Source: Pandoraea pneumonica (GTDB taxonomy: Bacteria > Pseudomonadota > Gammaproteobacteria > Burkholderiales > Burkholderiaceae). Taken from it: a stretch of 64,000 nt of DNA. The first letter of the stretch is position 1. Each line of letters begins with the position of its first letter. Below, one piece after another: positions 16,141-34,013 of the stretch. The stretch covers positions 179,478 through 243,477 of the forward strand of contig NZ_CABPSK010000006.1 in the NCBI RefSeq assembly GCF_902459645.1. Reading direction: 5' to 3'. The notes below the pieces were generated by a model that made no database searches, was not told where the DNA came from, and was given only the letters and a program-made list of their open reading frames with translations. A program made the translations under genes and the position numbers.

Positions 16141-17100
16141 TTAGCCAGCGACCGCGTGGCGTGCGGCGACCGGCTCGTCTTTGGTCAATTCCGACGGCAA
16201 GCGGAATTGGATGGTTTCCTCGATGCCGTCCATGAGCGTCACTTCGACGGTGTCGATGCGGCGCAGCGCGTCGATCACGTCTTCGACCATGCGCTCGGGC
16301 GCGGACGCCCCGGCGGTAATACCGATGCGGGCTTGGCCGCGCACCCACTCGGGGTTCACTTCCGAGCCGTCGGCCACGAGGTAGCTAGGCAACCCCATTT
16401 CCGAGCCGATTTCGCGCAGGCGGTTCGAGTTCGAGCTATTCGTCGCGCCGACCACCAACAGCACATCCACGCGCTCGCACAGTTCGCGCACGGCGGTCTG
16501 GCGGTTTTGCGTGGCGTAGCAAATGTCTTTGGTGTTCGGTCCGACGATATTGGTGAAGCGTTGTTGCAGCGCGGCAATGATACCGCGAGTCTCGTCGACC
16601 GACAGGGTGGTCTGCGTGACGTACGACACCGGCGTGTTCACCGGCAAAGGCAGCAGATCGACATCGGCTTCGGTTTGCACCAGGTGCACCGGACCGTCGA
16701 TTTGGCCCATCGTGCCTTCCACTTCGGGGTGACCCGCGTGGCCGATCAGGATGACTTCGCGTCCAGCGGAAACGTAGTTCTTGCCCTGAATATGCACTTT
16801 GGTCACGAGCGGGCACGTGGCGTTCAAGACTTTCAGGCCGCGCGTCTGCGCTTCCTGTTCAACCACACGTGCAACACCATGGGCGCTGAAAATAGTGACA
16901 GCGCCCGCAGGGGCTTCGGAAAGCTCGTCGATAAAGCGCGCGCCTTTGGCCTTGAGGGAATCGACCACATGCTTGTTGTGGACGATCTCATGGCGTACGT
17001 AGACCGGCGCGCCGTATTTTTCCAGGGCACGCTCGACGATCTCGATGGCACGTATGACACCCGCACAAAACCCGCGGGGTTGGGCAAGGATGACTTGCAT
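16141..17100 (-). CDS. ispH: 4-hydroxy-3-methylbut-2-enyl diphosphate reductase
   Basis: IspH (LytB) makes IPP and DMAPP in the last step of the MEP pathway, feeding the farnesyl diphosphate that HpnD uses. The 319-residue protein has the three Fe-S cysteines at 12 (GFCAGV), 96 ([11 protein letters not shown]) and 194 (DICYATQNR), plus the SNSNRL diphosphate-binding loop. It heads the ispH-hpnH-hpnA-hpnB operon. Together with dxs at 21009-22925, two MEP-pathway genes lie inside the triterpenoid locus. Whether this is the only ispH copy cannot be seen here. Confidence 0.96.
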
Positions 17101-17434: not shown

Positions 17435-18082
17435 TTATTTGCCGAAACGGTCGTTCTTGTCGCGCAGATAAGCGATCAGGCCGTCGATGCCGCCCTGTGC
17501 AATGCGCGCCTTGAACTGCGGCTGATACAGCTGGATGAGCCAGGCGTCGGCGACGTTTTCGCCCATCATGTTGATGTCGTAGATTTTCCAGCCCTTGTCT
17601 GTCTTGCCCAGACGGTAGGCCACCGAGAGCGTGTCGCCGGTGCCGCTGACCGTGGCGCCGACGACAGCGTCGGTGCTGCCTGCCGACACTTTGGCCGGAT
17701 CGTACTTGAACGAGAGCTGCGAGCCGCGCACTTGCGAGAGTTGCAAGGCATAGGTGTTCACGAGCAACTGCTGGAATTGTTCGAAGACCTGCTGCTGCTG
17801 GGCGGGCGTCGCGCCGTCGAACGCCTTCGGGCCGACGGCGTAGCGCGTGGTGCGGCGGAAGTCGGTGTAAGGCAGGAAGTCGCGCTCGACCACTTTGGCG
17901 GTCGCGGCCACATCGCCGTCACGAGCCGCCGGATCGGCCTTGGCCGCCTTGACGACCGTCTCGACGGCGGTTTTCACCATATCGTTCGGATTGGCGTTGT
18001 TCGTCTGTGCCCAGACGCCCGACGAAGCGGTTGAAACGGCCAAGGTGGCCGCGGCCATCGCCGTCACCAGAAATTTCTTCAT
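17435..18082 (-). CDS. hpnM: MlaC/HpnM-family periplasmic lipid-binding protein
   Basis: This is a 215-residue protein with a clear signal peptide (MKKFLVTAMAAATLAVSTASS, cleavage after VWA near residue 25) and an MlaC/Ttg2D fold. The family block DFLPYTDFRRTTRYAVG lies near residue 70, and GWKIYDINMMGENVADAW near 165. MlaC proteins carry phospholipids across the periplasm; the HpnM subgroup occurs with hopanoid genes and may carry hopanoids. It is divergent from hpnN, an RND lipid transporter, which fits a shared trafficking role. Confidence 0.87.
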   Translation of the reverse strand: MKKFLVTAMAAATLAVSTASSGVWAQTNNANPNDMVKTAVETVVKAAKADPAARDGDVAATAKVVERDFLPYTDFRRTTRYAVGPKAFDGATPAQQQQVFEQFQQLLVNTYALQLSQVRGSQLSFKYDPAKVSAGSTDAVVGATVSGTGDTLSVAYRLGKTDKGWKIYDINMMGENVADAWLIQLYQPQFKARIAQGGIDGLIAYLRDKNDRFGK

Positions 18083-21008: not shown

Positions 21009-22925
21009 TTACTGCGATGAAGGGACCGCTTCGACCTTGCCGCCAAGCCGTTCCGCGAGCGCGCGGCGAATCGAAGCGGCAATACCCGTGGCATCGAGCC
21101 CGACCGACGCCAGTTGCTGCGCGGGCGTTCCTTGATCGATGTACTTATCGGGCAAACCGAGTTGCAGCACGGGCACCAGCACGCCGTGCGCGTTGAGCGC
21201 TTCGACGCATGCCGTACCGGCACCGCCCATGATCGCGCCTTCTTCCAACGTCACGACGAGGTCATGCGAGCGGGCCATTTCGAGCACCGTGGCTTCGTCG
21301 AGCGGCTTCACGAAGCGCATGTTGACTACACTGGCGTCGAACTCGTTGGCCACTTGCTCAGCGAGCGCGACCATCGGACCAAAGGCCAATACCGCCACGC
21401 GACGTCCTGCCGGGGCGGCGCTCTGGCGGCGTACCTGAGCGCGCCCGACGGGCAGCGTGGACAAGCCCGCTTCCGTTTTCACGCCCGGCCCCGTGCCGCG
21501 CGGATATCGCACAGCCGACGGCCCATCGATACCGAGCGCCGTCTGCAACAACTGGCGGCATTCGTTCTCGTCGGCCGGCGTCATCACCACCATGTTCGGA
21601 ATACACCGCAGGTAGGCGATATCGTAGGCACCGGCGTGCGTCGCACCGTCCGCCCCGACCAAACCGCCACGGTCGATCGCAAAAACGACCGGCAGGTTTT
21701 GCAGCGCGACGTCGTGAATCACCTGGTCGTAGCCGCGTTGCAGGAACGTGGAATAGATCGCGACAACGGGCTTGAGGCCTTCCGTGGCGATCCCGCCCGC
21801 GAACGTCACCGCGTGCTGCTCGGCGATGCCCACGTCGTAGTACCTCTCCGGAAAGCGTTTCTCGAATTCCACCAGCCCCGAGCCTTCGCGCATGGCGGGC
21901 GTGATGCCGACCACGCGTGCGTCGGCTGCGGCGGCGTCGCAGAGCCACTCGCCAAACACTTGCGTGTAGGTCTTCGGCGTGACGGTCCCCGGCGCTGCCG
22001 GACGAATGCCTTCGCTCGGATTGAACTTGCCCGGGCCGTGATACAGCACCGGATCGGCTTCGGCGAGCTTGTAGCCGCGACCCTTGCGTGTGACCACGTG
22101 CAGGAATTGCGGCCCCTTGAGCGCCTTGATGTTCTCGAGCGCCGGAATTAGGGCATCGAGATCATGACCGTCGATCGGGCCGAGGTAGTTGAAGCCAAAC
22201 TCTTCGAACATCGTGCCGGTGGGCGACACGATCGCCTTGGCGTGTTCTTCGAGCTTGTGTGCGAATTCGCGCATCGGCGCCGGGGCGTTGCGCAACAGAT
22301 TGCGCACGCTCTCTTTACCGGCGGAATAGAACTGGCCCGACATCAGTCGCGTGAGGTACTGGTTGAGCGCACCCACGGGCGGTGAGATCGACATGTCGTT
22401 GTCGTTGAGCACGACGAGGAACGGCAGATCGTCGTACACGCCCGCGTTGTTCAGCGCCTCGAACGCTTCGCCTGCAGTCAGGGCGCCGTCACCGATCACG
22501 GCAATCGCATGACGCTTCTCGCCCTTCACCTTGCTGGCGAGCGCCATGCCGAGCGCGGCGGAAATCGACGTGCTCGAATGGGCCGTGCCAAAGGTGTCGT
22601 AGGGCGATTCGTCGCGCTTCGGAAAGCCAGACAAGCCTTGCCATTGGCGCAGCGTCGGCATGGCTTCACGGCGACCAGTGAGGATCTTGTGCGGGTATGT
22701 CTGATGACCCACGTCCCACACGATGCGATCGTTGGGCGTGTCGAACACGTAATGCAGCGCAATCGTCAGTTCGACCGTGCCGAGGTTCGACGACAGATGC
22801 CCGCCGGTGCGCGACACGTTGTCGAGCACGCAGGCGCGCAGTTCGTCGGCCAAACGGCGCAGGTCGGCGCGCGAGAGGGCGCGCAAGTCGGCGGGGGAGC
22901 GGAGGTTGGCTAGGAGTTCTGCCAT
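21009..22925 (-). CDS. dxs: 1-deoxy-D-xylulose-5-phosphate synthase
   Basis: Dxs condenses pyruvate and glyceraldehyde 3-phosphate, the entry step of the MEP isoprenoid pathway. The 638-residue length is normal. It shows the ThDP motif region [20 protein letters not shown] (near residue 150), [10 protein letters not shown] at the N-terminus and the transketolase-like [11 protein letters not shown] in the second half. It is the last gene of the seven-gene operon that makes aminoethylphosphonate, 20 bases after phnW. This puts isoprenoid supply under the same promoter as phosphonate synthesis. Confidence 0.97.
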
Positions 22926-22945
22926 GGCTGAGCGTCCGGTCCCGC

Positions 22946-24019
22946 TTACTTCACCAACCTGGCGAACGACGCCAGCAGGCGATCGATGTCGGCAGCCGTC
23001 AGGTTACCCATCGTCGAGATGCGGAACAGTTCCTTCGACAAGCCGCCTTGACCGGCATAAATCACAAAGCCATCGGCCTTGAGCCAGTCGTGCAGGCGGG
23101 GGTAATCCACACCGGCGGGCAGTTTGTACGCGCGCAGTACGACCGACGATTCGTTCGACGGCAGCACGCTGTCCATGCCCAGTGCGGCAAGGCCAGCGCG
23201 TGCCTGCTCGGCTAGCGCACCGTAATGGGCGTGACGTTGTTGCCAGCCACCGGCGTCTTCGAGCTCACGCAGGGCTTCGACCAGCGCGTAATACGCATGG
23301 ACGGACGGCGTGAACGGCGTATTGCGCTCGGCTTGCAGCTTCGCCAGTCGTGCGATGTCGAGGTAATACGTGCGGCTAAACGCCTTGGCAAGCGCGTCCT
23401 TGCGCACCATCACGAACGACACGCCCGGCACACCGTGCACGCACTTGTTCGCGGTAGCGGCCACGGCCACGATGCCCGAATCGTTGAAATCGATGGCTTC
23501 GGCGGCGAAGCTGCTCACGCCGTCGACCAGCAAGTCGATGCCGCGCTCGCGGCAGGCGCGCGCGATGCCGCCCAGTTCGTTCAGGCGGCCCGTGGTCGTT
23601 TCGTGATGAATGATCGCCACATTGGTGTACGGACGCTCGCCAGCGGCGTCGAGCTTCGCGACGATCTGCGCCAAATCCGGAGCCTGCATCCATTCGAAAT
23701 GAATGACGTCGTGATCGATGCGGTACTGCTTGGCGATTTGCGAGATGCGTTCGCCGTACACACCGTTCTCGACGATCAGCAGACGGCCGTTTTCGGGCAC
23801 GAGACCCGCCGTCATGCTCTCGACCGCAGCGGTGCCCGAACCGGTCATCAGCACCGGCGTCCACACGGCCGGGTCGAGGCCGTAGACGGCCGTCAGACGC
23901 GCACGGGCTTCGTCTTGCAAGTCGAAGAACTCGGGCTCACGGTGGCACAGATCGGGTTGCAGCAGGCTCTTGCGGACACGCTCGGTCAGGGTAACGGGGC
24001 CCGGATTCAGTAACAGCAT
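22946..24019 (-). CDS. phnW: 2-aminoethylphosphonate transaminase (PhnW family)
   Basis: This is a 357-residue fold-type I PLP enzyme that interconverts AEP and phosphonoacetaldehyde. It has the PhnW start [21 protein letters not shown] at 60-68 for PLP phosphate, the Asp of DGVSSF near 167 and the Schiff-base Lys at 192 (ATANKCVHG). PhnW is usually catabolic with phnX, but phnX is absent here. The neighbours PEP mutase and phosphonopyruvate decarboxylase argue that it runs toward AEP. A GAGGAAG ribosome site precedes the ATG. Confidence 0.91.
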
Positions 24020-24060
24020 GGCGAAGCTTCCTCGGCGGATATTGTTGTAAGGGGGGAGGC

Positions 24061-25239
24061 TCAGGCGTGAGCCTTAGCAATGTGATCCATCAGACGCGAT
24101 TTCACGGCTTCGGGCGTGACCTTCGGGCGCGGCAAGCCGTCGGGCGTGCCGGGGCGCGTGGTCAGGCAGGCAAAGCGCGGGCCGTCGCTCAGGCTCGTGC
24201 TACGGCCGTCGAACAACTGTTCGATGACATCGAGCGTATCGCCTTCGAGCGCGAGCGCATAGCCGCTGGCCGCCGCCACACCCGCGAACGAGATTGTCGG
24301 TGACACCGTGGCTTGTGCTCCGGTCGAGTCGTGCGATGCGTTATCGAGCAGCAGATGCACGAGGTTCGACGGGCCATACGCGCCCAGTGTGGCGAATGCG
24401 CCCATGCGCATCAAGGCCGCACCGTCGCCGTCGAGGGCCACCACGCGCAGGTCGGGGCGTGCGAGCGCCAGACCGAGCGCCAGCGTGGTGACGCAGCCCA
24501 TCGAGCCGACCATATACAACTGGTTGGCGCGGTCGTCGAGCGCGTAGAGTTCGCGTCCGCAGAAGCCGGTCGAGGCCAGCACCACGGTGCCTTCAAGGGG
24601 GGTGTGCGCGATAACGCGCTCAAGCGCATCGCGGCGCGTCGGCAGATCGGCCGGGCCCACGCCGCGCATCAGCGACGCCGGGGCAGGCTGCGCCGGGCGC
24701 GCGGGACGCTCCGCCGGTTGCAGCGGGAACGGCGCGACGCTGCCTTTTTGCATCACGAGTGCGTAGGGGCGGCCCGTCTCGTCCATATGACGCACAGCGC
24801 GCTCCAGGGCGGGGGCAATGGCGTCCGGCTCGGTCGGGAACAACTCCCACGGCACTTCCATCAGGTCGAGCATCGCGGGGGTGATCGGGCCCATGAGCGC
24901 GTGCTGCGGCTCATCGGTGATCCCCGGCTGGCCGCGCCACGTCACGATCAGCAACTGCGGCAGACGGAACGTCCACGTGAGCGACGTGAGCGGGCTCACG
25001 GCATTGCCGAGGCCCGAGTTCTGCATCATCGTGACGGCGCGTGCACCCCGGCCTTCGCCCAGCGTCGCACCCGCCGCGATGGCGACCGCGTCGCCCTCGT
25101 TGGCGGCCGACAGGTAGTGCAGCGTCGGGTCTTGCAGTACGTAATTGATAAACGGCGTGAGAAACGAGCACGGCACGCCCGTGTACCACGTGAAGCCGTG
25201 CGTACGCGCGGCTTCGACGAACTGACCGGCTTCAATCAC
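24061..25239 (-). CDS. Phosphonopyruvate decarboxylase
   Basis: Ppd (AepY) is a ThDP enzyme that decarboxylates phosphonopyruvate to phosphonoacetaldehyde, pulling the unfavourable PEP mutase reaction forward. In the 392-residue protein, Glu48 (AANEGDA) is the cofactor-activating acid. [12 protein letters not shown] near 106-117 is characteristic of the family, and GDG at 271-273 with LLLDN at 296-300 forms the ThDP/Mg motif. GTG 25239 is chosen because GGAGG lies six bases upstream; a longer frame would add about 20 Arg-rich residues. It overlaps the PEP mutase stop by eight bases. Confidence 0.93.
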
Positions 25240-26938
25240 CTTGCGCCTCCGCGTCGGCACCGCTAAACGGCGTCTGACCATGGGCGAAGTCCGCGGCACG
25301 GCGGAATTCTTCCATGTCGTTCACGCCGCGCCAGTGGCCGTGCACGTACTGCACTTCGATTTTTGCGCCGTCTTCGACCAACGCGTTGATCAGTTCCGGC
25401 ATGCCGAGCTGATCGAAGTCGGGACGGGCTTGCAGGGCAGTGAACACGCGCTGGAGGTGAGCGCGGCCTTCACCGCGTACGCCCAGCAGGCCGATCCAGC
25501 GGCCATTCGGCGTGCGGCCGTCGTCGGTGGCGTCGCCGCTGATCTTCTCGAGCAGCACTTGCTGGCCGAACAGGCCGCGATCGTCACCGGCCGAGCAGTA
25601 CGCAAAATCGCGCACGCTGGCGTTGGCCGCATTCGCGGTGGTGGCAGCGGTGGAATCGACCACCACGGTGATGTCGGCATCGCTCTCGACCAAATCGCGC
25701 ACGATGTAGCTGCGGAACAGCAGGTCGCCGTACGAGATGACGGTGTCGTGGGCGAACGCGTCGCTCACGCGAGCGAGCGAGGCGAGCTCACCGGTTTCGG
25801 CGAAGCGCTCGTTGATGGCGAGCGTGATACCGGCCGTGTCGATCGCGTCGGCACGATAGCCGCCCACCACCGTAATGTCGTTCACGTTCTGCTTTTTGAA
25901 GCCGTCGACCAGCCAGCGCAGCAGCGGCTTGCCAGCGACCGGCAGCATCACTTTCGGGCGGTCCGTCGTCACGCTCTCGAGGTTCTTGCCACGGCTTGCG
26001 GCAAGCACGATGGCCGAGCGCGGCGCGTTGGCGGCAGACAGGTAGCGGTCTTCGGCTTCGGTGTACTCGTCGGCGTCTTGCAAGCGGAAGATTTCGTCCA
26101 CCGTCGCAATACGGTCTTCAACGTTGATGAGCGTTTCGCTGCGGTGAATCTCTGCCGCGACCGCTTGCATTGCCGACGTGGCCGAGCGAATCAGATGGTT
26201 CGCCCAGATCACGACGCTGATACCGGCTTCGCGGAACACGTCGGTCGGCGTGCTGTAGTACTTGGTCGGCACGATCACCAGCGGGCAGCGGTTGTCCCAC
26301 TCACGCGCGAACTGCACGATCTCGTCGGCGCGCTTGAGCTTGCTGTGAATCAGGATGGCATCGGCACCGGCCAGGCGATACGCCTCGGCGCGGCGCAGGG
26401 CTTCTTCCATGCCCCAGCCTGCGATGAGGGCTTCGACGCGCGCGACGATCGAGAAATCGTCGTCGGCCTGCGAGTCTTTACCGGCCTTGATCTTGCCGCA
26501 GAATTCGTCGATGTCGGCGAGCGGCTGGCGTTCGCCGCCGATGAAGCTGTTGGTCTTCGGGAAGACCTTGTCTTCGATACAGACGCCTGCAACACCACGC
26601 TGCTCAAGCTTGCGCACGAGACGGCGCATGTTGTTGAAGTTGCCGTAGCCGGTGTCGCCGTCGAGCAGAATCGGCAGATCGCTGGCGTCGGCCATGAATT
26701 CGAGGTTGTCGACTACCTGCGTCCAACTGGCTTCGTTGTTGTCACGCACGCCGAACTGGGCGGAAATCGCGAGGCCCGATGCCCAGATGCCCTTGAAGCC
26801 TGCCTCGCGCACGATGCGCGCCGACAGGCCGTTGTGGGCTTCCATCAGGAATTCGAGCTGATTGCTGCGCAGCATGGCGCGCAACTGTGCCGCGCGCGTG
26901 GCGGTCGGCGGCAGGGTGAATGCGTCGGGAGCGTTCAT
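25232..26938 (-). CDS. pepM: PEP mutase fused to a nucleotidyltransferase domain
   Basis: PEP mutase makes the C-P bond by rearranging phosphoenolpyruvate to phosphonopyruvate, the committed step of nearly all phosphonate synthesis. The 568-residue protein has an N-terminal TIM barrel (about 15-290) with [10 protein letters not shown] at 91-100 and the diagnostic EDK(x5)NS at 122-131. This motif separates mutases from isocitrate lyase-like hydrolases. Residues 305-560 form a nucleotidyltransferase-like domain with PKVMLP (328-333), but its glycine loop reads LAASRGKNL, a degraded form of LAAGxGxRL. The ATG overlaps the upstream gene by four bases (ATGA). Confidence 0.95.
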
Positions 26939-27699
26939 TCGGACACCATCGTGAGCGGTTCGAGTTGCGGCAGCACCTGATCGGCGGCGCGCTTCACATC
27001 TTCGGGGTAGTCGATCTCGATCCACGGGAAGCCCGTGACATCAGCGGTCTCGAATTGCGCGCCGCGCTCGAGCAGCAGATCGCGTACGGCTTCTTCGTGC
27101 GGCATCTTGGCGCGGCCCGATTCGACGTAATCGCGCGTGATTTCTGCCAGACGCGTGGCCGTCGCTTCGTTGAAACGGAAGAAGCCGACCGACTCGCCCA
27201 CGGTGTCGTATTCGAGGCCGACCATCACTTGCTTACGCAGTTCGACCGGCACGCCATCGCGCAGGCACAGCTTCACGGGCTCGTCGCCCACTTCGAAGTC
27301 GCGGTCGATGAGCAGACGGTTGGCCGTCTTGCCCACCACCAGCGCGTTAAAGATGCGCTGATCGTAGAGCACGTCGGCATCCATCACGAGCACATCGCCG
27401 CCAGCGGTCATCGCTTCGGCGGCCGTGTGCAGCGTGAGCACGCTGCCCAGATGGAATTCGGGGTTCAGGTAAATCTTCGGACGCGGGGTCCAGTTCAGGC
27501 GTTCGAGTTCTTCGCTCACCTGTTCGTGATGAAAGCCGAGCGCGAGCACCACGTCGGTGATGCCGGCCGCTGCGAGCATGCGCAGATGGCGCTCGAGCAG
27601 CGACATGCCGTCGAACTTGAGCAGGCACTTGGGCGCCTGCTTGTCTTCGGGCTGGAGCAAACGCAGGCCCATGCCTGCTGCGAGAATGATGGCCCGCAT
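26935..27699 (-). CDS. NTP transferase, probable CTP:aminoethylphosphonate cytidylyltransferase
   Basis: This is a 254-residue stand-alone sugar-phosphate/phosphocholine-type nucleotidyltransferase with an intact signature LAAGMGLRL (6-14) followed by PKCLL (23-27). The metal-binding acid lies in [11 protein letters not shown]. Its place between PEP mutase and a CDP-alcohol phosphotransferase suggests that it activates AEP to CMP-AEP, as LicC and PntC do for phosphocholine and AEP. AAGGA lies upstream of the ATG. The nucleotide (CTP) and substrate (AEP) are inferred from context only. Confidence 0.82.
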
Positions 27700-27714
27700 G
27701 GTCGGTATCCTTCT

Positions 27715-28737
27715 TTAGAGCGGTGCAGTATCCGTGGCTGCGGGCATCGACGCGCTTTGTTGCGAGGCGAGTCGGCGGCGCCAGCCACGTTCGGAGAAAT
27801 GCAGATAGACGAGGCCCGGCACGCCGAGCAGCAGCTCGCGCGTACGTTTGGCCAGGGAGAGGGCCAGCGCGGCATCGGCCGGCAGACCCACGAGCGGGGC
27901 GAGCAGCAGGTAACCGCCTTCCTGTACGCCGAGCGAGCCCGGCACGAAGAACGCAGCACCGCGAATCGCTTGGCCGAGGCTTTCGAGCAACATGGCGTCG
28001 ACCCAGCTGACCGGGTGGCCGATGAATTGCAGAATCAGCCAGACTTCGGCCGTACCCACGATCCAACCCACCAGACTGAGGGCGAAACTCGCGAGCACCT
28101 GACGGCGCTGGCCGTACATGCGCTGCACGATTTCGTCGACGGCGTCGGCCCTGTCGAGCAGCGACGACCAGTCGCGCTTGGACGACATTTTCGAGAGCGT
28201 ACGAAACGCCCAGCCGAAGATGCCGCGCCGCTGCGCAATGTAGAACGCGTAGAGCAGGGCGGAGATGAGTGCGGTAGCGAGCAGCATCGGCACCCAGAGG
28301 CCGCCGTCGCTGTCATGCGTGGCACTGATGCCGAAGACGGCCAGGCCGAGCAGCGCGAAGACGATTTGCGCGACGGCTTGCAACGTGGTGCTCACGGTGA
28401 TGGCCGCGGCGGCTTCGCGCCCGGGCATCCCGCTTTGCTTCATTTGACGCACCATCGCAATCGGGCCACCGATCTGACCGGCCGGTAGCAGGCTGTTCAC
28501 CGACTCGCCGGTCCAGCGCGTGAGTACCGCGCGGCGCAGCGAGCACGATTTCGCGACCAGTACCTGAATGGCGGCGGCGTCGAGCACCAGCGGCACCACG
28601 TGGAACGCGGCGATAGGCAACAGCCCCCAGCCGGCCATGGCCAGTGTCGACATCACCGAGCCCGCACCCTGCCAGATGAGCAGGGCGACGAAAAGGGCGA
28701 TACCGAGGGTCAGAGATACGATGGCAGTCCGGTTCAT
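27715..28737 (-). CDS. hpnL: HpnL-like integral membrane protein (LPG synthase TM-type)
   Basis: This is a 340-residue protein with about eight hydrophobic segments, the plan of the lysylphosphatidylglycerol-synthase transmembrane family that includes HpnL. Family-like blocks are RWTGESVNSLLPAGQIGG near residue 74 and the C-terminal GAAFFVPGSLGVQEGGYL. No soluble aminoacyl-transferase domain is present. Members are often suspected of moving or modifying lipids. It starts immediately after the stop of the CDP-alcohol phosphotransferase fusion (TAAATG), so it is probably linked to that lipid product. A flippase role is a guess. Confidence 0.78.
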   Translation of the reverse strand: MNRTAIVSLTLGIALFVALLIWQGAGSVMSTLAMAGWGLLPIAAFHVVPLVLDAAAIQVLVAKSCSLRRAVLTRWTGESVNSLLPAGQIGGPIAMVRQMKQSGMPGREAAAAITVSTTLQAVAQIVFALLGLAVFGISATHDSDGGLWVPMLLATALISALLYAFYIAQRRGIFGWAFRTLSKMSSKRDWSSLLDRADAVDEIVQRMYGQRRQVLASFALSLVGWIVGTAEVWLILQFIGHPVSWVDAMLLESLGQAIRGAAFFVPGSLGVQEGGYLLLAPLVGLPADAALALSLAKRTRELLLGVPGLVYLHFSERGWRRRLASQQSASMPAATDTAPL

Positions 28738-30252
28738 TTAGCGTTTCGTCCGTTGCAATACCTGACGAAACACTTGCCGGAAACCGAAGTAAGCGATGGC
28801 GTCCTTCATATTCGAAATGAAGCGCTGCCAAGTGCCCATGCGCGGGTCGGTCACGTACTCGAACGTGAGCGAGATTCGCTCCTCGTTGTCGCCGAGCGGC
28901 GTGATCCGGTGATGCAGTTTGTCCCCGTCGAAGAACACCAGCGCACCGGGCGGATAGGCCACGGCGCCATCGACTTGCGGCACGCCCGGATTGCGCGTGT
29001 GAAGTCGGTACTCGAGCTTGCAGCTCGATTGGTCCACCACGCCAAGCAGCAGCGTATAACGGCGGCCCTTGTAGTAGGAGGTGTCGTAGTGCCAGCCGAT
29101 GTGATCGCCCGGACGCGTGTAGTAATACAGCGCGTACGCGTGCGGATCGTCCACCGGCGACGGCAGCAGTTTTTCGCCAGCCAGACGCTCAAGAAAGCGC
29201 ATCAGGGCAGGCGAGCGATACAAATCGGCTACGAAGGGAGCAAGCTCGTCGAGCGTGTGACGGCTCACGCTGCCGCCCTGCTTGTGGCCGGGAAGATAGT
29301 TACGGTTCACGTTCGGCGTGACCGCGCGCGCGGCGGCGATCAACTGATCGGTCACCGTTTGCGGCAGAAACTTCTCGAGATAGATGAACGCGTCTTGCGA
29401 CTTGAATTCAGACGTCACTGCGTCGAAGTCGATGGCATCCATCGCGCGCTCGATTTCAGCGTCGGCAGCGAAGGCGGCCGGGGCGAGCGGTGCGGTCGGG
29501 GTGGCCTGCGATGCTTCGCCAGCGGCAGCGCTGGCGGCTTTCGCGCTCGTCGCATCTGCGGGCACCGGCAACGGGCGGCGCATCACTCGTACGTAGTCGG
29601 CAACAACCAGCAGCGCAAACAGCGGCGCGCCGATGGCGGCAGCGATCAGAAAGCCGCGCGTGCCATCGAACAGCGTGACGAGCGGCATCAGATACAGCAC
29701 GTCTTCCGTTTCGAAGCCGCCTACCGATGCTTGCTTGGTACCCGCTTTGCCCACGCGATCTTCAATGCGCATGCGCAGGAAGAAGATCAAGGCGACCGCG
29801 ACACCGGCCATCCAGCCGAGCAGCGAGGCGGACACCGGCAAGCTGCCCGGCGCCACCGCTTCCACGCCCATACCGATGCCGCCGAAGAGCAGCACCGTCA
29901 CGAAGGCGTCGGACGCGAGATCGTAAAGATGGCCGAAGCGGCTCGTCTTGCCGCTAATGCGCGCCAGTTCGCCATCGGTGTGATCGATGAAGTTCGACAA
30001 CACGAGCAGCACCGCGCCAAGGTTGGCCATGGCATAGCCGCCCTTTGCGAACGCCCACGCGCACACCAGCCCGACGATTAACCGCAGGGTCGTCAGGTGG
30101 TTCGGGCTCACGCGGGTATTGATGAGCGGCGTGACCATCCAACGCGCAAGTCGCGCGTCGTATTGGCGCGGGCGCGGCGGTACTGGGCGTGCAGTTTTGC
30201 TAGCGGCGGGCGCAGCAGCAGCCGCCGAAATGAGTTTCGGTATCGTTTCCAT
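28738..30252 (-). CDS. CDP-alcohol phosphotransferase fused to a 2-oxoglutarate/Fe(II) dioxygenase
   Basis: This is a 504-residue two-domain protein. Residues 30-225 form a membrane CDP-alcohol phosphotransferase domain with the complete metal motif: D90, D93 and G94 (DHTDGELAR), then G107, D111 and D115. Residues 226-265 are an Ala/Pro/Thr linker. Residues 266-504 form a cupin-type Fe(II)/2-oxoglutarate oxygenase with H388-Y-D390, a distal His at 447/448 and Arg459. In this operon the first domain would move phosphono-AEP from CMP-AEP to a lipid alcohol, and the second could hydroxylate the head group or an acyl chain. ATG 30252 is chosen; alternatives lie at 30273 and 30297. No ribosome site is seen, consistent with a leaderless start. 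Confidence 0.85.
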   Translation of the reverse strand: METIPKLISAAAAAPAASKTARPVPPRPRQYDARLARWMVTPLINTRVSPNHLTTLRLIVGLVCAWAFAKGGYAMANLGAVLLVLSNFIDHTDGELARISGKTSRFGHLYDLASDAFVTVLLFGGIGMGVEAVAPGSLPVSASLLGWMAGVAVALIFFLRMRIEDRVGKAGTKQASVGGFETEDVLYLMPLVTLFDGTRGFLIAAAIGAPLFALLVVADYVRVMRRPLPVPADATSAKAASAAAGEASQATPTAPLAPAAFAADAEIERAMDAIDFDAVTSEFKSQDAFIYLEKFLPQTVTDQLIAAARAVTPNVNRNYLPGHKQGGSVSRHTLDELAPFVADLYRSPALMRFLERLAGEKLLPSPVDDPHAYALYYYTRPGDHIGWHYDTSYYKGRRYTLLLGVVDQSSCKLEYRLHTRNPGVPQVDGAVAYPPGALVFFDGDKLHHRITPLGDNEERISLTFEYVTDPRMGTWQRFISNMKDAIAYFGFRQVFRQVLQRTKR

Positions 30253-30289: not shown

Positions 30290-30298
30290 GTGCACATG
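30282..30298. promoter_or_regulatory. 17-bp palindromic operator candidate
   Basis: CATGTGCA-G-TGCACATG is a perfect inverted repeat with eight-base arms. It covers the candidate -35 of the phosphonate operon, the usual place for a repressor or an activator of a weak -35. The regulator is unknown. Confidence 0.55.
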
Positions 30299-30664
30299 AA
30301 ACGCCTGTATTAACCGCGACAACGTTGACGCTCACGAGCATTGACGCGCGTGAAATGAGACCTATTGACGCGTGCGAATGGTTCTAAGAGCCCTGCTTAA
30401 CACCATAGGTTATAAGCGCAGCGAATTCGCGATTATATTCCGCAATACTGTGTTTCGCTTTCGCACACAGTGGACGCGTCGTTTTGACGCATAGCACGAC
30501 GAAATGCAGTGAGCGCAGATGGAATAACGCCAGAAAAAGCCGCAATTCGCCGCTTTTTGCGAGATGAATCGACTGTGAATCGGGATAGCGGTGTATTCGC
30601 GATGCGCGGATAATGGCGGTCCCGTTGGTCATTTATGCGGCGTTATCCGACCCGCCTTCCCCTC

Positions 30665-31420
30665 ATGTCCCAAACGATTGCCATTCTTACCGGCGCCTCG
30701 CGTGGCCTTGGTGCCTCGCTCGCTCGCGGCCTGCTGGCTCCCGGCACGCATCTCGTCACGCTCGCGCGTCGCACGGACGATGACCTTGCGTCGCTCGCAC
30801 GCGATCAGGGCGTCACCCTCGAGCAGGTGCCCGTCGACCTGTCGGATGCCGAGGCGGCTGCCAGCGTGGCGGAGCGCATCTTCGCCAAGCTGCCGCGTGA
30901 CGCGTCGCGTTACCTGTTGATCAACAACGCCGGTACGGTCAATCCGGTGGCGAATACCGCCGCGCTGACCGACGTCGCTGCCATTGGCGCAGCGTTCACG
31001 CTCAACGTGACGGCCGTCATGGTGCTGACCGCGCGTTTTCTCGCCGCCACTCAGGGCCTGAGCGCTCGCCGCCAGATCGTGAACATCTCGTCCGGTGCCG
31101 GGCGCAATCCGAATGCCGGTTGGGGCGTGTATTGCGCAACGAAGGCTGCACTGGATATGTATACGCGCGTGGTCAACGCGGAACATCGGGAGCATGGCGT
31201 GCAAGCCGTCTCGATGGCGCCGGGCGTGGTCGACACGGGCATGCAAGAGACGATTCGTAGCAGCAGCGTCGAAAGCTTCCCGGCATTGGCACGTTTTCAG
31301 GAAATGAAGGCCACCGGCAAACTGTCGACGCCCGAAGACGTGGCGCGCCGCATCCTGGCTTATACCGAGCGCGATGACTTCGGTCAGACCGAGATCGACG
31401 ACATCCGCAATTACAGCTGA
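30665..31420 (+). CDS. Short-chain dehydrogenase/reductase
   Basis: This is a 251-residue classical SDR. It has the NADP-binding TGASRGLGASLA at about 9-20 with an RR pair at 35-36 that favours NADP, then INNAG, the catalytic Ser in NISSGAGR and YCATK. The C-terminal part (MAPGVVDTGMQETIR) resembles benzil reductase/sepiapterin reductase-like members, so a diketone or similar carbonyl is a possible substrate. ATG 30665 is chosen because the Rossmann motif then starts at the usual distance. It is divergent from the phosphonate operon, with no evidence of a shared function. Confidence 0.87.
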   Translation: MSQTIAILTGASRGLGASLARGLLAPGTHLVTLARRTDDDLASLARDQGVTLEQVPVDLSDAEAAASVAERIFAKLPRDASRYLLINNAGTVNPVANTAALTDVAAIGAAFTLNVTAVMVLTARFLAATQGLSARRQIVNISSGAGRNPNAGWGVYCATKAALDMYTRVVNAEHREHGVQAVSMAPGVVDTGMQETIRSSSVESFPALARFQEMKATGKLSTPEDVARRILAYTERDDFGQTEIDDIRNYS

Positions 31421-31440
31421 GCGGACGCAAGTCTCGGCTT

Positions 31441-31502
31441 CGTTCAACTGAGCGTTGAACGTTAAAAGGCACCGACCGGCGATTGCCGGACCGGTGCCTT
31501 TT
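31441..31502. terminator. Double hairpin terminator after the dehydrogenase gene
   Basis: Two hairpins follow each other: CGTTCAAC/GTTGAACG (31441-31461), then a longer one with AAAAGGCACCG and CGGTGCCTTTT arms (31464-31502) that also holds an inner CCGGC/GCCGG stem. The T-rich and A-rich flanks suit both this gene and the convergent small gene. Confidence 0.85.
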
Positions 31503-31531
31503 CGTTTGAGGCGCGAATGCTCTCGCTGGCG

Positions 31532-31879
31532 CTACTGCTCTGTGCTGGTGATGAAAACCCCGCCGTTGCGCTCCGGTGCAAACAGAATGAGCGTTGGCGC
31601 GTGAATGTCGAAGGCTCGTTCGCAGGCCTCGTTGTACGAGTCGAACTGCACCGCCCAAGCCCCGTTTCGGACGTAACAGTGCGTGATGGTGTCGGTGCGA
31701 CGGTCGAACTCCTGCCCAAGAAATACACCCTGCGTGTAACACCAGACGACGAACCCGTGGAAATCTGCCTGCTCCGGCGCACGGAACACTCGCCATCGCG
31801 CATCGTCCCGCCCCAATTGACGCGCCGTCGCGCCCGCCGCCCAACGCTCGAACCCGTCATGCCGTTTGTGTGGCTCCAA
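31532..31879 (-). CDS. Small protein of unknown function
   Basis: This is a 115-residue soluble protein with no signal peptide and no domain that I recognise. It contains paired aromatic and acidic residues (GFVVWCYTQGVFLGQ, HCYVRNGAWAVQFDSYNEA) and ends GGVFITSTEQ. The ATG at 31879 is preceded by AAGGGGGA at a suitable distance, which supports this frame over the longer overlapping frame in the same region. It is convergent with the dehydrogenase gene and shares its terminator. Confidence 0.55.
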   Translation of the reverse strand: MEPHKRHDGFERWAAGATARQLGRDDARWRVFRAPEQADFHGFVVWCYTQGVFLGQEFDRRTDTITHCYVRNGAWAVQFDSYNEACERAFDIHAPTLILFAPERNGGVFITSTEQ

Positions 31880-31913
31880 TGTTGTATTCCCCCTTTATGA
31901 TGAAACGCCTTCT

Positions 31914-31947
31914 GGGTGTCGAAAACCGACACCCCCGAGCGTTTTTT
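31914..31947. terminator. Hairpin with downstream T-run upstream of the 115-residue gene
   Basis: Perfect eight-base arms (GGGTGTCG and CGACACCC) surround a five-base loop. Six T residues follow on the plus strand after a short gap. No plus-strand gene ends here, so it may instead end the cupin transcript on the minus strand inefficiently, or act as an attenuator. Confidence 0.4.
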
Positions 31948-32041
31948 CATAGTCGGAAGTTGTTCCCGGTATTTCTATCAGGCAATTCCGAAAAGCCGCG
32001 GGGAATTTCTCCAAAGAGCCTTCGCTGGCAGGTTGCCTCCG

Positions 32042-32413
32042 TCAGTCGTAATGGATGGCCAGCCAGACCGTCGTCTCGCCTTGCGCTGTCCATTCGACGC
32101 GGTGACGGCGGTGCGCGACGATCGTGACGGCGTCGCCGGGCCCGAGCGTCAGCGTTTCACCGGGGCTATCGGCGAAGGCCAAACCCGCCGAGCCGCTGAG
32201 CACGACCACCCATTCGTGCTGTGGCTGGTCGTACCAGAACCCCGCTGGCGACGCCTGCCCGGTCGACACGATGCGCTCGACGCGCATCCCCGGCCGAGCG
32301 ATCAACGTATCGAACTGCTCCGCCGCCGCAGGGTCGGGGTGGGCGGGCAGTCCAGCGAAAAGACAGGTGTCGGGCAGGAGGGGCGGCGCCATACGTTCTA
32401 TGCGTTCACTCAT
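32042..32413 (-). CDS. Cupin-domain protein
   Basis: This is a 123-residue single-domain cupin. It shows the expected small beta-barrel blocks: QPQHEWVVVLSGSAGLAFAD for motif 1 and GPGDAVTIVAHRRHRVEWT for motif 2. The metal site has fewer His in motif 1 than classical cupins, so metal binding is uncertain. ATG 32413 is chosen because the frame upstream overlaps the next gene and is Arg-rich. It lies 107 bases downstream of the siderophore reductase gene on the same strand and may be part of that operon. Confidence 0.75.
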   Translation of the reverse strand: MSERIERMAPPLLPDTCLFAGLPAHPDPAAAEQFDTLIARPGMRVERIVSTGQASPAGFWYDQPQHEWVVVLSGSAGLAFADSPGETLTLGPGDAVTIVAHRRHRVEWTAQGETTVWLAIHYD

Positions 32414-32520
32414 CGGGCGGGGATAGAAAGCATACACGTCGCGGTCTCGGCGGCAGGAGGCAAGAGTCGGGTGACGAAGGTCAGTGGCAGCGCGTGAGTG
32501 GCAAATGGCTGGCGCAAACG

Positions 32521-33360
32521 TCAGTCGTCGAGGTTCTCGTGCACGGCGGCATCGCCGCGACGCCAGTACGCCGCTGCCTTGACCCATTTGGGATTGAGGC
32601 CGCGCTCGCCTACCAAGTGCGCTCGCACCGCTTTCGCAACGCTGGCTTCGGCGGCCACCCAGGCGTGCAGATCGCCTGCGGGCAAGGTGGCGACTTGCAG
32701 CGCATCGAGCAACGCCGTGCTCTCGCCAGCCGCCGTGCCTTCCCGGTAAATCCACTCGACCACGACATCCGCTTCGCTCGTGAACCGCAGGCGGTCTTGC
32801 GCGCTGTCGACTTCGGCAAACACGAAGACGAGCGCGCCCGCCGGCAATTCGGCGAGTCGGCGCGAGATGGCGGGCAGTGCCGTGTCGTCGCCGATGAGCA
32901 CGTAACCATCGAAATTCATCGGAATGACGAACGAGCCACGCGGGCCGCCGACACCCAGGCGGTCGCCGGGTTTGGCTGAGCGTGCCCACTGCGTTGCAGG
33001 GCCGGATTCATGCATGGCGAAATCGATGACCAGCGTTTTCGAGGCGGCATCGAAGCTGCGCGGCGTGTAGTCGCGCATGAGGCGCGGTGCGTCGCCGGGG
33101 GCAGGCTTCGCGACGCCTTCGGGGCCGAGCTGCGGCACCGACACTTCGCCGGTTTCGGGGTTCGGGAAGAAGAGCTTCACGTGATCGTCGAAGCCCGGGC
33201 TAGTAAAGCCTTCGAGATCGTCGCCGCCCAAGGTCACGCGCAGCATATGCGGCGTGATCGGCGCGACGCTGCGCACTTCCAGCAGGCGCATGCGCAATTC
33301 GTGGCGTACACGGCGCGGCGTGCGATCGGGGTTGGTGTTGAGTGCAGCGTTGTCTTGCAT
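32521..33360 (-). CDS. Siderophore-interacting protein (NADPH-dependent ferric siderophore reductase)
   Basis: This is a 279-residue protein of the ViuB/YqjH family, which releases iron from ferric siderophores by reduction in the cytoplasm. An FAD-binding barrel covers about residues 20-135 with RDYTPRSFD, and the NAD(P)-binding half includes VLIGDDTALPAI and AAEASVAKAVRAHLV. Its ATG overlaps the PadR stop by one base, so the two are co-expressed. The same pairing is known in Escherichia coli as yqjI-yqjH, where the regulator responds to nickel and iron. Confidence 0.88.
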   Translation of the reverse strand: MQDNAALNTNPDRTPRRVRHELRMRLLEVRSVAPITPHMLRVTLGGDDLEGFTSPGFDDHVKLFFPNPETGEVSVPQLGPEGVAKPAPGDAPRLMRDYTPRSFDAASKTLVIDFAMHESGPATQWARSAKPGDRLGVGGPRGSFVIPMNFDGYVLIGDDTALPAISRRLAELPAGALVFVFAEVDSAQDRLRFTSEADVVVEWIYREGTAAGESTALLDALQVATLPAGDLHAWVAAEASVAKAVRAHLVGERGLNPKWVKAAAYWRRGDAAVHENLDD

Positions 33361-34013
33361 CAGAGTCGCTCCAGTTGTTGTGCGGCCGCGTCGAGAATCG
33401 CGGCGAATGCGTTGGCTTGCTCGGTCGAGAGCGGTTCGCCGCCCAGACGCAAGTGCACCGCATATTTGAAGTTGTGCAGCGCGCGCATGACTTGTGGTGG
33501 CATGTCTTCGGAACGCTCGCGGCGCGATGCCAGCCGGGCGAGTAGCTCGGTGACGGCTGCTTCGTTTTCCGCCAGATATTCGCGTCCCGTGTCGGTGACT
33601 TCGTACGATTTGCGCTGGGTTTCGCCCGCGTTTTCCTGCACGCGGATATAGCCCATTTCTTCTAGCAGCGTGAGCGTCGGGTACACGACACCGGCGCTCG
33701 GGCTGTAAGTCCCGTTCACGCTTTCTTCAATCGCTTTGATGAGTTCGTAGCCGTGACGCGGTTGTTGCGCGATCAGGTGCAGAAGCACCATGCGTAGCCC
33801 GCCATGGCTGAAGAGTCGGCCGCCTCCGCGTCCACCGCGGCCTTCGCCACGCCCCTCGCCGTGCCCACGGCCCCGGCGGCCATCGCCGAAACCGTCGCCC
33901 ATTCCTTCGCCGCCCGCGCGGCGCCCATGACGCTCGCCGCGGCGCTCGTCGAAATCCATGCCATCCAGGCCCAGCGGGCCTCGGCCCATGAAATCGCCTC
34001 GAGATCCTCGCAT
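33360..34013 (-). CDS. PadR-family regulator with a Gly/Arg-rich N-terminus (YqjI-like)
   Basis: This is a 217-residue protein. The first 68 residues are low complexity, rich in Gly and Arg with scattered His (RRGERHGRR, RGHGEGRGEG). Residues 70-150 hold the PadR winged helix (MVLLHLIAQQPRHGYELIKAIEE, then PSAGVVYPTLTLLEEMGYI). A helical C-terminal dimerisation part follows. The fused metal-loving N-terminus plus the downstream siderophore reductase matches E. coli YqjI, so a nickel- or iron-responsive repressor is likely. AAGGGG precedes the ATG. A GATATATC palindrome at 34051-34058 is a candidate operator. Confidence 0.83.
   Translation of the reverse strand: MRGSRGDFMGRGPLGLDGMDFDERRGERHGRRAGGEGMGDGFGDGRRGRGHGEGRGEGRGGRGGGRLFSHGGLRMVLLHLIAQQPRHGYELIKAIEESVNGTYSPSAGVVYPTLTLLEEMGYIRVQENAGETQRKSYEVTDTGREYLAENEAAVTELLARLASRRERSEDMPPQVMRALHNFKYAVHLRLGGEPLSTEQANAFAAILDAAAQQLERL

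What the first reader, a model, noticed from the sequence alone, without database searches (positions are those of the whole stretch)
21009..30252. A complete aminoethylphosphonate-lipid operon joined to a hopanoid locus
Seven same-strand genes with tiny gaps or overlaps encode PEP mutase, phosphonopyruvate decarboxylase, AEP transaminase, a nucleotidyltransferase, a CDP-alcohol phosphotransferase, HpnL and Dxs. Read with established pathway knowledge, this is a full route from PEP to a phosphonolipid with an AEP head group. It lies directly against hpnCDE-shc-hpnGAHB-hpnMN. The acceptor could be diacylglycerol or, more excitingly, the polyol of a hopanoid, which would give a phosphonohopanoid. 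The co-location suggests that the two lipids act together in membrane stability. No phosphonate breakdown gene is present.
Basis: partly seen in the sequence, partly recalled or inferred. Interest (0 to 1): 0.87.

Follow-up and report, generated by a model that had tools for sequence, protein, structure and literature searches.

The report
Phosphonate head-group cassette beside hopanoid genes
A Pandoraea bacterium carries, beside its genes for cholesterol-like hopanoid lipids, a gene set that should make a carbon-phosphorus head group and attach it to a membrane lipid; comparison with related genomes suggests that this lipid may be the hopanoid itself, which would be an unusual kind of membrane lipid.

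Summary
Seven minus-strand genes (30252-21009) encode a CDP-alcohol phosphotransferase fused to a 2OG-Fe(II) oxygenase, HpnL, a PntC-like cytidylyltransferase, a PEP mutase/NTP-transferase fusion, phosphonopyruvate decarboxylase, AEP transaminase and Dxs. They run convergent to hpnN. The genus is Pandoraea. (1) All 144 unit-bearing genomes in a 249-genome Burkholderiaceae sample carry squalene-hopene cyclase (one as a partial match); so do 9 of 9 genomes with the PepM fusion in a Burkholderiales sample, against 26 of 300 overall. (2) Of 76 Burkholderiaceae with the cyclase that were tested, 72 have the phosphonate unit, hpnJ (BHT cyclitol ether), or both; the four with neither lack HpnL. In Pandoraea the two alternate (with unit: 0 of 26 have HpnJ; without: 3 of 3); other genera can have both. 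(3) An HpnL follows the oxygenase in 79 of 80 loci; 27 such HpnLs form one group in a tree. (4) In two other families a PhnY*-like hydroxylase stands in for the oxygenase. Best reading: an alternative hopanoid head-group cassette making an (hydroxy)aminoethylphosphonyl-hopanoid. The acceptor is inferred; no chemistry was possible.

The parts
28738..30252 (-). CDP-alcohol phosphotransferase (about residues 45-250 of the longest frame, which starts at 30297) fused to a 2OG-Fe(II) oxygenase of the HalD/BesD fold (about residues 281-519)
27715..28737 (-). HpnL (flippase-like membrane protein) of the phosphonate-unit group
   Evidence: TIGR03476 354.5 bits, cut-off 195.65; 27 phosphonate-unit HpnL rows lie on one side of a branch, support 100/100
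26935..27699 (-). PntC-like cytidylyltransferase (NTP2), predicted to make CMP-AEP
   Evidence: best PDB match 6pd1 (Tde-PntC) E 4e-9 over residues 2-246; by that alignment Glu104 and Glu196 of Tde-PntC face Asp107 and Glu202
25232..26938 (-). PEP mutase fused to a second, sequence-divergent NTP-transferase domain (ATG at 26938 overlaps the NTP2 stop)
   Evidence: TIGR02320 408.5 bits; PDB PEP mutase 1m1b E 2.7e-129; NTP domain matches LicC 1jyk E 3.6e-12 over its residues 7-118 only
24061..25299 (-). phosphonopyruvate decarboxylase (start uncertain; overlaps pepM)
   Evidence: TIGR03297 438 bits, cut-off 312.5
22946..24019 (-). 2-aminoethylphosphonate transaminase
   Evidence: TIGR03301 367.5 bits, cut-off 360.8
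21009..22925 (-). Dxs, 1-deoxy-D-xylulose-5-phosphate synthase (isoprenoid supply)
   Evidence: TIGR00204 845.7 bits
18131..20896 (+). hpnN, hopanoid transporter, convergent with the block
   Evidence: NF052374 1253 bits, cut-off 1100
17435..18082 (-). hpnM (MlaC family)
   Evidence: PF05494 126.7 bits; name hpnM by position
16141..17100 (-). ispH
   Evidence: NF002188 492.6 bits
14996..16117 (-). hpnH (frame open from 16348; family match begins at residue 78)
   Evidence: TIGR03470 557.8 bits
14000..14995 (-). hpnA
   Evidence: TIGR03466 502.3 bits
12801..14003 (-). hpnB
   Evidence: TIGR03469 532.5 bits
11866..12717 (+). hpnG (start uncertain)
   Evidence: TIGR03468 202.8 bits
9935..12016 (+). 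shc, squalene-hopene cyclase
   Evidence: TIGR01507 742.1 bits
8653..9906 (+). hpnE
   Evidence: TIGR03467 415.5 bits
7643..8653 (+). hpnD
   Evidence: TIGR03465 316.2 bits
6598..7491 (-). squalene/phytoene synthase family protein, hpnC by position
   Evidence: PF00494 226.8 bits

Best explanation
The block is a hopanoid head-group cassette of phosphonate type. PepM turns PEP into phosphonopyruvate, Ppd gives phosphonoacetaldehyde, the transaminase gives 2-aminoethylphosphonate (AEP), and the PntC-like enzyme gives CMP-AEP (shown at family level, with biochemical precedent elsewhere). The membrane CDP-alcohol phosphotransferase then moves the AEP group from CMP-AEP onto a lipid hydroxyl (inferred from family). 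The fused 2OG-Fe(II) oxygenase hydroxylates the AEP, most likely at C1, giving a 1-hydroxy-2-aminoethylphosphonyl head group (inferred). The acceptor is most likely the terminal hydroxyl of a bacteriohopanepolyol made with HpnH/HpnG next door, the lipid that HpnIJK decorates with a cyclitol ether elsewhere (inferred from alternation and co-occurrence). HpnL moves the head-grouped hopanoid across the inner membrane (inferred) and HpnN carries it to the outer membrane (role of HpnN as given in PMC12583986, passage).
For: Enzymes, motifs, folds. Dependence on hopanoids: the oxygenase is in 144 of 249 Burkholderiaceae genomes; 143 of these have SHC at E<=1e-100, and the last, G502, has a partial SHC match. 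In 300 Burkholderiales the PepM-NTP fusion (over 300 bits) is in 9 and SHC in 26; all 9 have SHC. Outside the family it is 4 of 4, from three families (SHC in 21 of 291; Fisher 2e-5). Alternation: of 76 SHC-bearing Burkholderiaceae tested, 72 have the unit, HpnJ or both, and the four with neither have no HpnL; Pandoraea with the unit 0 of 26 HpnJ, without it 3 of 3. HpnL follows the oxygenase in 79 of 80 loci, 2-26 bases between the matches; of the 30 best HpnL loci 20 lie beside OG/NTP2 and 10 beside HpnK/HpnJ; the phosphonate-unit HpnLs group apart. Linkage to hpn genes in four lineages. The oxygenase is replaced by a PhnY*-like enzyme in two other families. PepM half and transferase half lie apart in many Paraburkholderia, yet 39 of 40 such genomes checked have the PepM fusion.
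Confidence: 0.56

Rival explanations
1. The acceptor is diacylglycerol: the block makes a phosphono-analogue of phosphatidylethanolamine, and the neighbourhood to hpn genes reflects joint work in the outer-membrane barrier. Loss of hpnIJK would be tolerated when the phosphonolipid is present.
For: The transferase profile and fold reach CEPT1 and CPT1, which use CDP-choline/ethanolamine and diacylglycerol; lipids with the hydroxy-AEP head group have been reported (Bdellovibrio stolpii, mentioned in PMC8154272, passage). Genera with both cassettes fit this as well as the hopanoid reading.
Confidence: 0.28
2. The AEP group goes to a glycan, lipid A or another surface polymer, as proposed for known Pnt pathways, and HpnL moves an undecaprenyl- or glycolipid-linked intermediate.
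For: Most bacterial phosphonate capacity is thought to serve cell surfaces, and a separate PntC plus a PepM-NTP fusion is the layout of such clusters (PMC6697681, abstract and sections 6, 7, 10).
Against: No LicD-type transferase or glycosyltransferase among the seven genes; the transferase is a CDP-alcohol phosphotransferase fused to the oxygenase; the SHC link would be unexplained.
Confidence: 0.1
3. A separate question from the acceptor: the oxygenase acts on the lipid acceptor (for example an extra side-chain hydroxyl on the hopanoid) and the head group is plain AEP.
For: The oxygenase is fused to the membrane transferase only in Pandoraea; its closest folds act on amine-bearing amino acids, not on phosphonates.
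Against: In G117, G159 and G128 the corresponding place is taken by an unrelated PhyH-fold enzyme whose best NCBIfam match is a phosphonate hydroxylase (192-199 bits in G117 and G128, under its 500 cut-off), which points to the phosphonate as common substrate.
Confidence: 0.3

Closest known systems
Pnt (phosphonyl tailoring) clusters with PntC and PepM-NTP fusion, e.g. Treponema denticola (PMC6697681)
   Same: PepM fused to an NTP-transferase, a separate PntC, Ppd and AEP transaminase; CMP-AEP as activated donor
   Different: Here the likely user of the donor is a CDP-alcohol phosphotransferase joined to a 2OG oxygenase and an HpnL, not LicD or glycan machinery, and the block tracks hopanoid genes in Burkholderiales
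hpnI-hpnJ-hpnK(-hpnL) cassette for BHT cyclitol ether
   Same: A movable head-group cassette with its own HpnL in the loci read; alternates with the phosphonate unit in Pandoraea
   Different: Adds and rearranges a sugar, no phosphorus (PMC12583986, passage); HpnL group distinct. HpnJ was sought only in genomes with SHC
Roseomonas hopene cyclase-PepM hybrid cluster (PMC8776678)
   Same: PepM gene linked to hopene cyclase; authors suggest an unknown terpene-phosphonate
   Different: The sections read name no transferase, oxygenase or HpnL and no acceptor; its genes were not compared here
1-hydroxy-2-AEP lipids of Bdellovibrio (Bacteriovorax) stolpii
   Same: Predicted head group
   Different: Sphingolipid backbone (recalled); genes of that organism were not examined here

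Membership tests
AEP biosynthesis (PepM-Ppd-AEP transaminase) | PEP mutase with EDK(X5)NS motif | tested here: met
   [10 protein letters not shown] at residues 151-160 of the longest frame; TIGR02320 above cut-off
AEP biosynthesis (PepM-Ppd-AEP transaminase) | Ppd and AEP transaminase in the same cluster | tested here: met
   TIGR03297 and TIGR03301 above cut-off
PntC (AEP cytidylyltransferase) | Full-length similarity to characterised PntC and its acidic residues near the AEP amine | tested here: inconclusive
   6pd1 over residues 2-246, E 4e-9; Glu196 kept as Glu202, Glu104 is Asp107 as in LicC (residues from PMC6697681 section 8)
CDP-alcohol phosphotransferase | D(X2)DG(X2)AR(X8)G(X3)D(X3)D motif and fold | tested here: met
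2OG-Fe(II) oxygenase, hydroxylase rather than halogenase | HxD...H facial triad with Asp present | tested here: met
   HYD 403-405; H463 conserved; HalD/BesD fold; activity not tested
HpnL (TIGR03476) | Score above curated cut-off | tested here: met
   354.5 against 195.65 bits
Hopanoid head-group cassette | Occurs only in genomes with hopanoid genes | tested here: met
   144 of 144 unit-bearing genomes of a 249-genome family sample have SHC, one partial; confounded by ancestry
Hopanoid head-group cassette | Product is a modified hopanoid | not testable with these tools
   needs lipid chemistry
PhnY*-type phosphonate hydroxylase | Homology of the window's oxygenase to the PhyH-fold PhnY* family | tested here: inconclusive
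   The window oxygenase gives HalD and 2OG-FeII_Oxy_3, no PhyH match, in Pfam; PhnY*-like tblastn hits were confined to L071, L073, L074 and L229 among the loci searched. Absence of a match is not proof.

The most novel reading that the evidence does not exclude
Phosphonohopanoids exist: many Burkholderiaceae put a (1-hydroxy-)2-aminoethylphosphonyl group on bacteriohopanetetrol, in some lineages instead of the cyclitol ether, and HpnL, whose function is not established, is the cassette-specific translocase for head-grouped hopanoids, at least one per cassette.
Probability: 0.48. Interest if true: 0.88.

Novelty: new variant of a known kind. Interest (0 to 1): 0.73.

Why it matters
Hopanoids are a bacterial counterpart of sterols and are used as molecular fossils. 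A zwitterionic phosphonate head group on them would, as far as I know (recalled), be absent from present hopanoid surveys; it would add a phosphonate sink in these bacteria and give HpnL, whose function is not established (PMC12583986, passage), a testable role. Because the cassette and hpnIJK alternate between close relatives in Pandoraea, a few strains, 31P NMR and LC-MS could settle the question.

Tried and rejected
Rejected: that the oxygenase is a halogenase (it has HxD; that halogenases lack this Asp is recalled). Rejected: that HpnL marks only the phosphonate unit; 28 of the 32 SHC-positive unit-negative genomes also have HpnL. In every HpnL locus away from the unit that I read, it belongs to an hpnI/J/K run or, once (L274), follows an HpnI-type glycosyltransferase; in L292 (G117) hpnN stands between hpnK and hpnL. 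Rejected: that any PepM cluster tracks hopanoids; in the phylum sample 21 of 378 genomes have PepM at E<=1e-80, and of the 20 others than this one 8 have SHC. The SHC rate of that sample as a whole was not measured. Of the 16 PepM stretches read from it, only L224 shows a CDP-alcohol phosphotransferase by tblastn.

Led nowhere or not done: whether the PepM-fused NTP domain is active (its nucleotide loop reads LAASRGKNL, against LAAGMGLRL in NTP2); genome searches for phosphonate breakdown genes; Roseomonas loci; a species tree to count independent cassette swaps.

Selection to bear in mind: the 80 genomes were 29 SHC-positive Pandoraea, all 29 other SHC-positive unit-negative genomes of the family sample, 18 hand-chosen of 118 other unit-positive ones, and 4 from outside the family. 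They were chosen before the HpnJ result, though I had already seen likely hpnJ/hpnK neighbours of HpnL in G319, G389, G439 and G562. One unit-positive Pandoraea (G016) was not in the family sample and not tested. In one search, 40 of 64 non-Pandoraea loci were checked; the one miss, G340, is a draft. Match lists were cut off; genome tables of positives were complete and were used for counts. In the relatives, the query labelled hpnM and hpnC was a wrong-strand frame; those labels entered no count.

Odds: on checking, G557, G472 and G405 (unit plus HpnJ) were added as evidence against, and confidence was lowered from 0.58 to 0.56 (novel case from 0.50 to 0.48).

In print: searches (open-access library; listings, of which 70 showed 30 of 38 and 98 showed 15 of 343) gave no title or abstract start that joins phosphonate synthesis to hpnIJK or HpnL; subscription papers are not covered. 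Read: PMC6697681 sections 6, 7, 8, 10; PMC8776678 passages and sections 14, 20; PMC12583986, PMC12696581, PMC8154272, PMC7474880 passages only. Schmerk et al. 2015 was not read, only seen as cited in PMC12583986.


Full report
What is there. On the minus strand of window 21009-30252 lie seven tightly packed genes (junctions 0, +15, -4, about -68, +41, +20 bases). In order of transcription they are a CDP-alcohol phosphotransferase fused to a 2OG-Fe(II) oxygenase, HpnL, an NTP transferase (NTP2), PEP mutase fused to a second NTP transferase, phosphonopyruvate decarboxylase, AEP transaminase and Dxs. The block ends 112 bases from the end of hpnN, which runs the other way. So the hopanoid locus (hpnC-, hpnD+, hpnE+, shc+, hpnG+, hpnB-, hpnA-, hpnH-, ispH-, hpnM-, hpnN+; hpnC and hpnM named by family and position) is a neighbour, not part of one operon. 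The nearest named records are Pandoraea (97% over the oxygenase domain).

Conservation. Of 365 stretches found for the oxygenase in genome contigs, 356 encode a relative; the best 80 were kept. By title, 77 of these 80 are Burkholderiaceae; the others are three MAGs labelled otherwise. HpnL follows the oxygenase in 79 of 80 (the exception is a contig end) and NTP2 is present in 77 of 80. Transferase and oxygenase are fused in 16 of 16 Pandoraea and 0 of 64 others, where they are neighbours. In the genus sample, 27 of 32 genomes including this one have the fused gene. PepM lies in the same stretch in 38 of 80, each time with its NTP domain. In many Paraburkholderia it sits elsewhere, yet 39 of 40 non-Pandoraea genomes checked carry the PepM fusion. 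So the transferase unit and the PepM unit belong together even when apart.

Hopanoid linkage. hpnN lies within the stretch in 13 of 16 Pandoraea loci (one of the other three is cut by a contig end) and in both Pararobbsia loci; in Pararobbsia shc is 13-14 kb from pepM. In Mycetohabitans rhizoxinica the annotated run goes from CDP-alcohol phosphotransferase through 2OG oxygenase, the HpnL-like gene, aepX, aepY, AEP transaminase, dxs, MMPL transporter, ispH, hpnH and hpnA to shc. In G128, of another Burkholderiales family, dxs, ispH, hpnH, hpnB, shc, hpnG, hpnA, hpnN, hpnL, AEP transaminase, ppd, pepM, NTP2, a PhyH-type oxygenase and the transferase form one run. A link of PepM to hopene cyclase is in print for Roseomonas (PMC8776678, sections 14 and 20), and terpene/phosphonate clusters for Mycetohabitans (PMC12696581, passage).

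Dependence on hopanoids. In 249 Burkholderiaceae genomes, 144 have the oxygenase and 175 have SHC at E<=1e-100. One oxygenase genome, G502, lacked SHC at that limit but has a partial match. In 300 Burkholderiales genomes, 9 have the PepM fusion (over 300 bits; G128 in two pieces) and 26 have SHC (25 over the cut-off, G128 in two pieces); all 9 have both. Outside the family it is 4 of 4, from three families, against 21 of 291 (Fisher 2e-5). Against this: ancestry is shared; G272 has a lower-scoring PepM-like gene (162 bits) in a phosphonate-like setting and no SHC; and PepM in general does not track SHC (8 of 20 in the phylum sample).

The alternation. HpnJ, the radical SAM enzyme of the BHT cyclitol ether route (as described in PMC12583986, passage), was sought in 80 chosen genomes, 76 of them SHC-bearing Burkholderiaceae. 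Unit-positive: 8 of 44 have HpnJ. Unit-negative: 28 of 32. In Pandoraea it is 0 of 26 against 3 of 3. In genus g3 the test gave 0 of 4 against 16 of 17, but a fifth unit-positive g3 genome, G557, has an hpnJ homolog in the locus read, so g3 is not clean; G472 and G405 likewise have both. Of the four genomes outside the family, G117 and G159 have HpnJ, G062 and G128 do not. Seventy-two of the 76 have at least one of the two cassettes; the four with neither (G391, G419, G453, G553) are exactly the four without HpnL. HpnL copies equal the number of cassettes in 63 of 76 and exceed it in 13; they are never fewer. One surplus copy that was read follows an HpnI-type glycosyltransferase. The 30 best-scoring HpnL loci lie beside the oxygenase and NTP2 (20) or beside HpnK/HpnJ (10). 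In a tree of 49 HpnL rows the 27 phosphonate-unit rows lie on one side of a branch with support 100/100; the HpnL of G128 falls in neither main group. Since HpnIJK work on bacteriohopanetetrol, the simplest reading is that the phosphonate unit works on it too.

The oxygenase. In G117 and G128 the place between NTP2 and the transferase holds a PhyH-fold enzyme whose best NCBIfam match is a methylphosphonate hydroxylase (199.5 and 191.9 bits, cut-off 500), and G159 has the same gene. A homolog with 44-50% identity lies beside PepM and NTP2 in L229, where no transferase was found. PhnY* turns AEP into (R)-1-hydroxy-2-AEP (PMC8154272, passage). Two unrelated oxygenases in the same place suggest a common reaction on the phosphonate, so the head group is probably 1-hydroxy-2-AEP, which has been reported in membrane lipids of Bdellovibrio stolpii (same passage). 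This step is inference.

Mechanism and standing. Shown at sequence level: the route to AEP and an activating enzyme. Inferred from family: transfer to a lipid hydroxyl. Inferred from comparison: hopanoid polyol as acceptor, HpnL as partner of each head-group cassette, hydroxylation of AEP. I put the hopanoid acceptor at 0.56, diacylglycerol at 0.28 and other surface acceptors at 0.1. The oxygenase rival (0.3) is a separate question and does not share that total. Burkholderia cenocepacia also carries the whole unit in one run. I recall no report of a phosphonohopanoid from it, but I did not read its lipid papers.

Verdict. The finding is real and goes further than stated. The gene neighbourhood is partly foreshadowed in print. 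The cassette alternation, the HpnL of its own group and the oxygenase were not met in the searches made, which cover open-access papers only.

Noticed in passing
L071 13818-14897 and 14894-15796 (G117); L073 13548-14621 (G159): Beside the phosphonate unit of another Burkholderiales family lies a Rieske oxygenase whose best NCBIfam match is a 4beta-methylsterol monooxygenase (178 bits, cut-off 600), and in G117 a second CDP-alcohol phosphotransferase. A triterpenoid-acting family here would fit a hopanoid acceptor.
   Followed up: partly
L274 5835-8445 (G439): A third HpnL copy directly follows an HpnI-type glycosyltransferase (TIGR03472, 543.7 bits) with no HpnJ or HpnK match in the 16 kb read: perhaps a third hopanoid head-group cassette.
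   Followed up: partly
window 25232-26035: The NTP-transferase domain fused to PepM is present in all 38 PepM-bearing loci although a separate PntC-like gene exists; its nucleotide loop is altered. Its role is unexplained.
   Followed up: partly
G391, G419, G453, G553: Hopanoid-cyclase genomes without HpnL, HpnJ or the phosphonate unit; G391 and G419 are only 1.2 Mb.
   Followed up: no
L153: A contig filed as a Klebsiella pneumoniae MAG carries a Burkholderiaceae-type phosphonate unit, probably a binning or labelling error.
   Followed up: no
L299 10842-11558 (Mycetohabitans rhizoxinica pBRH01): PLSDB lists a predicted AAC(3) resistance gene at 100% identity exactly over a gene annotated as an ABC transporter permease; likely an annotation clash.
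   Followed up: no
window 30635-34013: Upstream neighbours found in all 16 Pandoraea loci: an SDR oxidoreductase (+), an unassigned 162-aa frame, a siderophore-interacting protein and a PadR regulator.
   Followed up: no
G014 (6.2 Mb, same genus): A full-size same-genus genome with no match for SHC, HpnL or the phosphonate unit: a natural control.
   Followed up: no
G023 and G025 (same genus): Two of the three unit-negative Pandoraea with SHC keep the hpn locus around hpnN but show no dxs or phosphonate genes in the stretches read beside it; their hpnIJKL lies elsewhere.
   Followed up: partly
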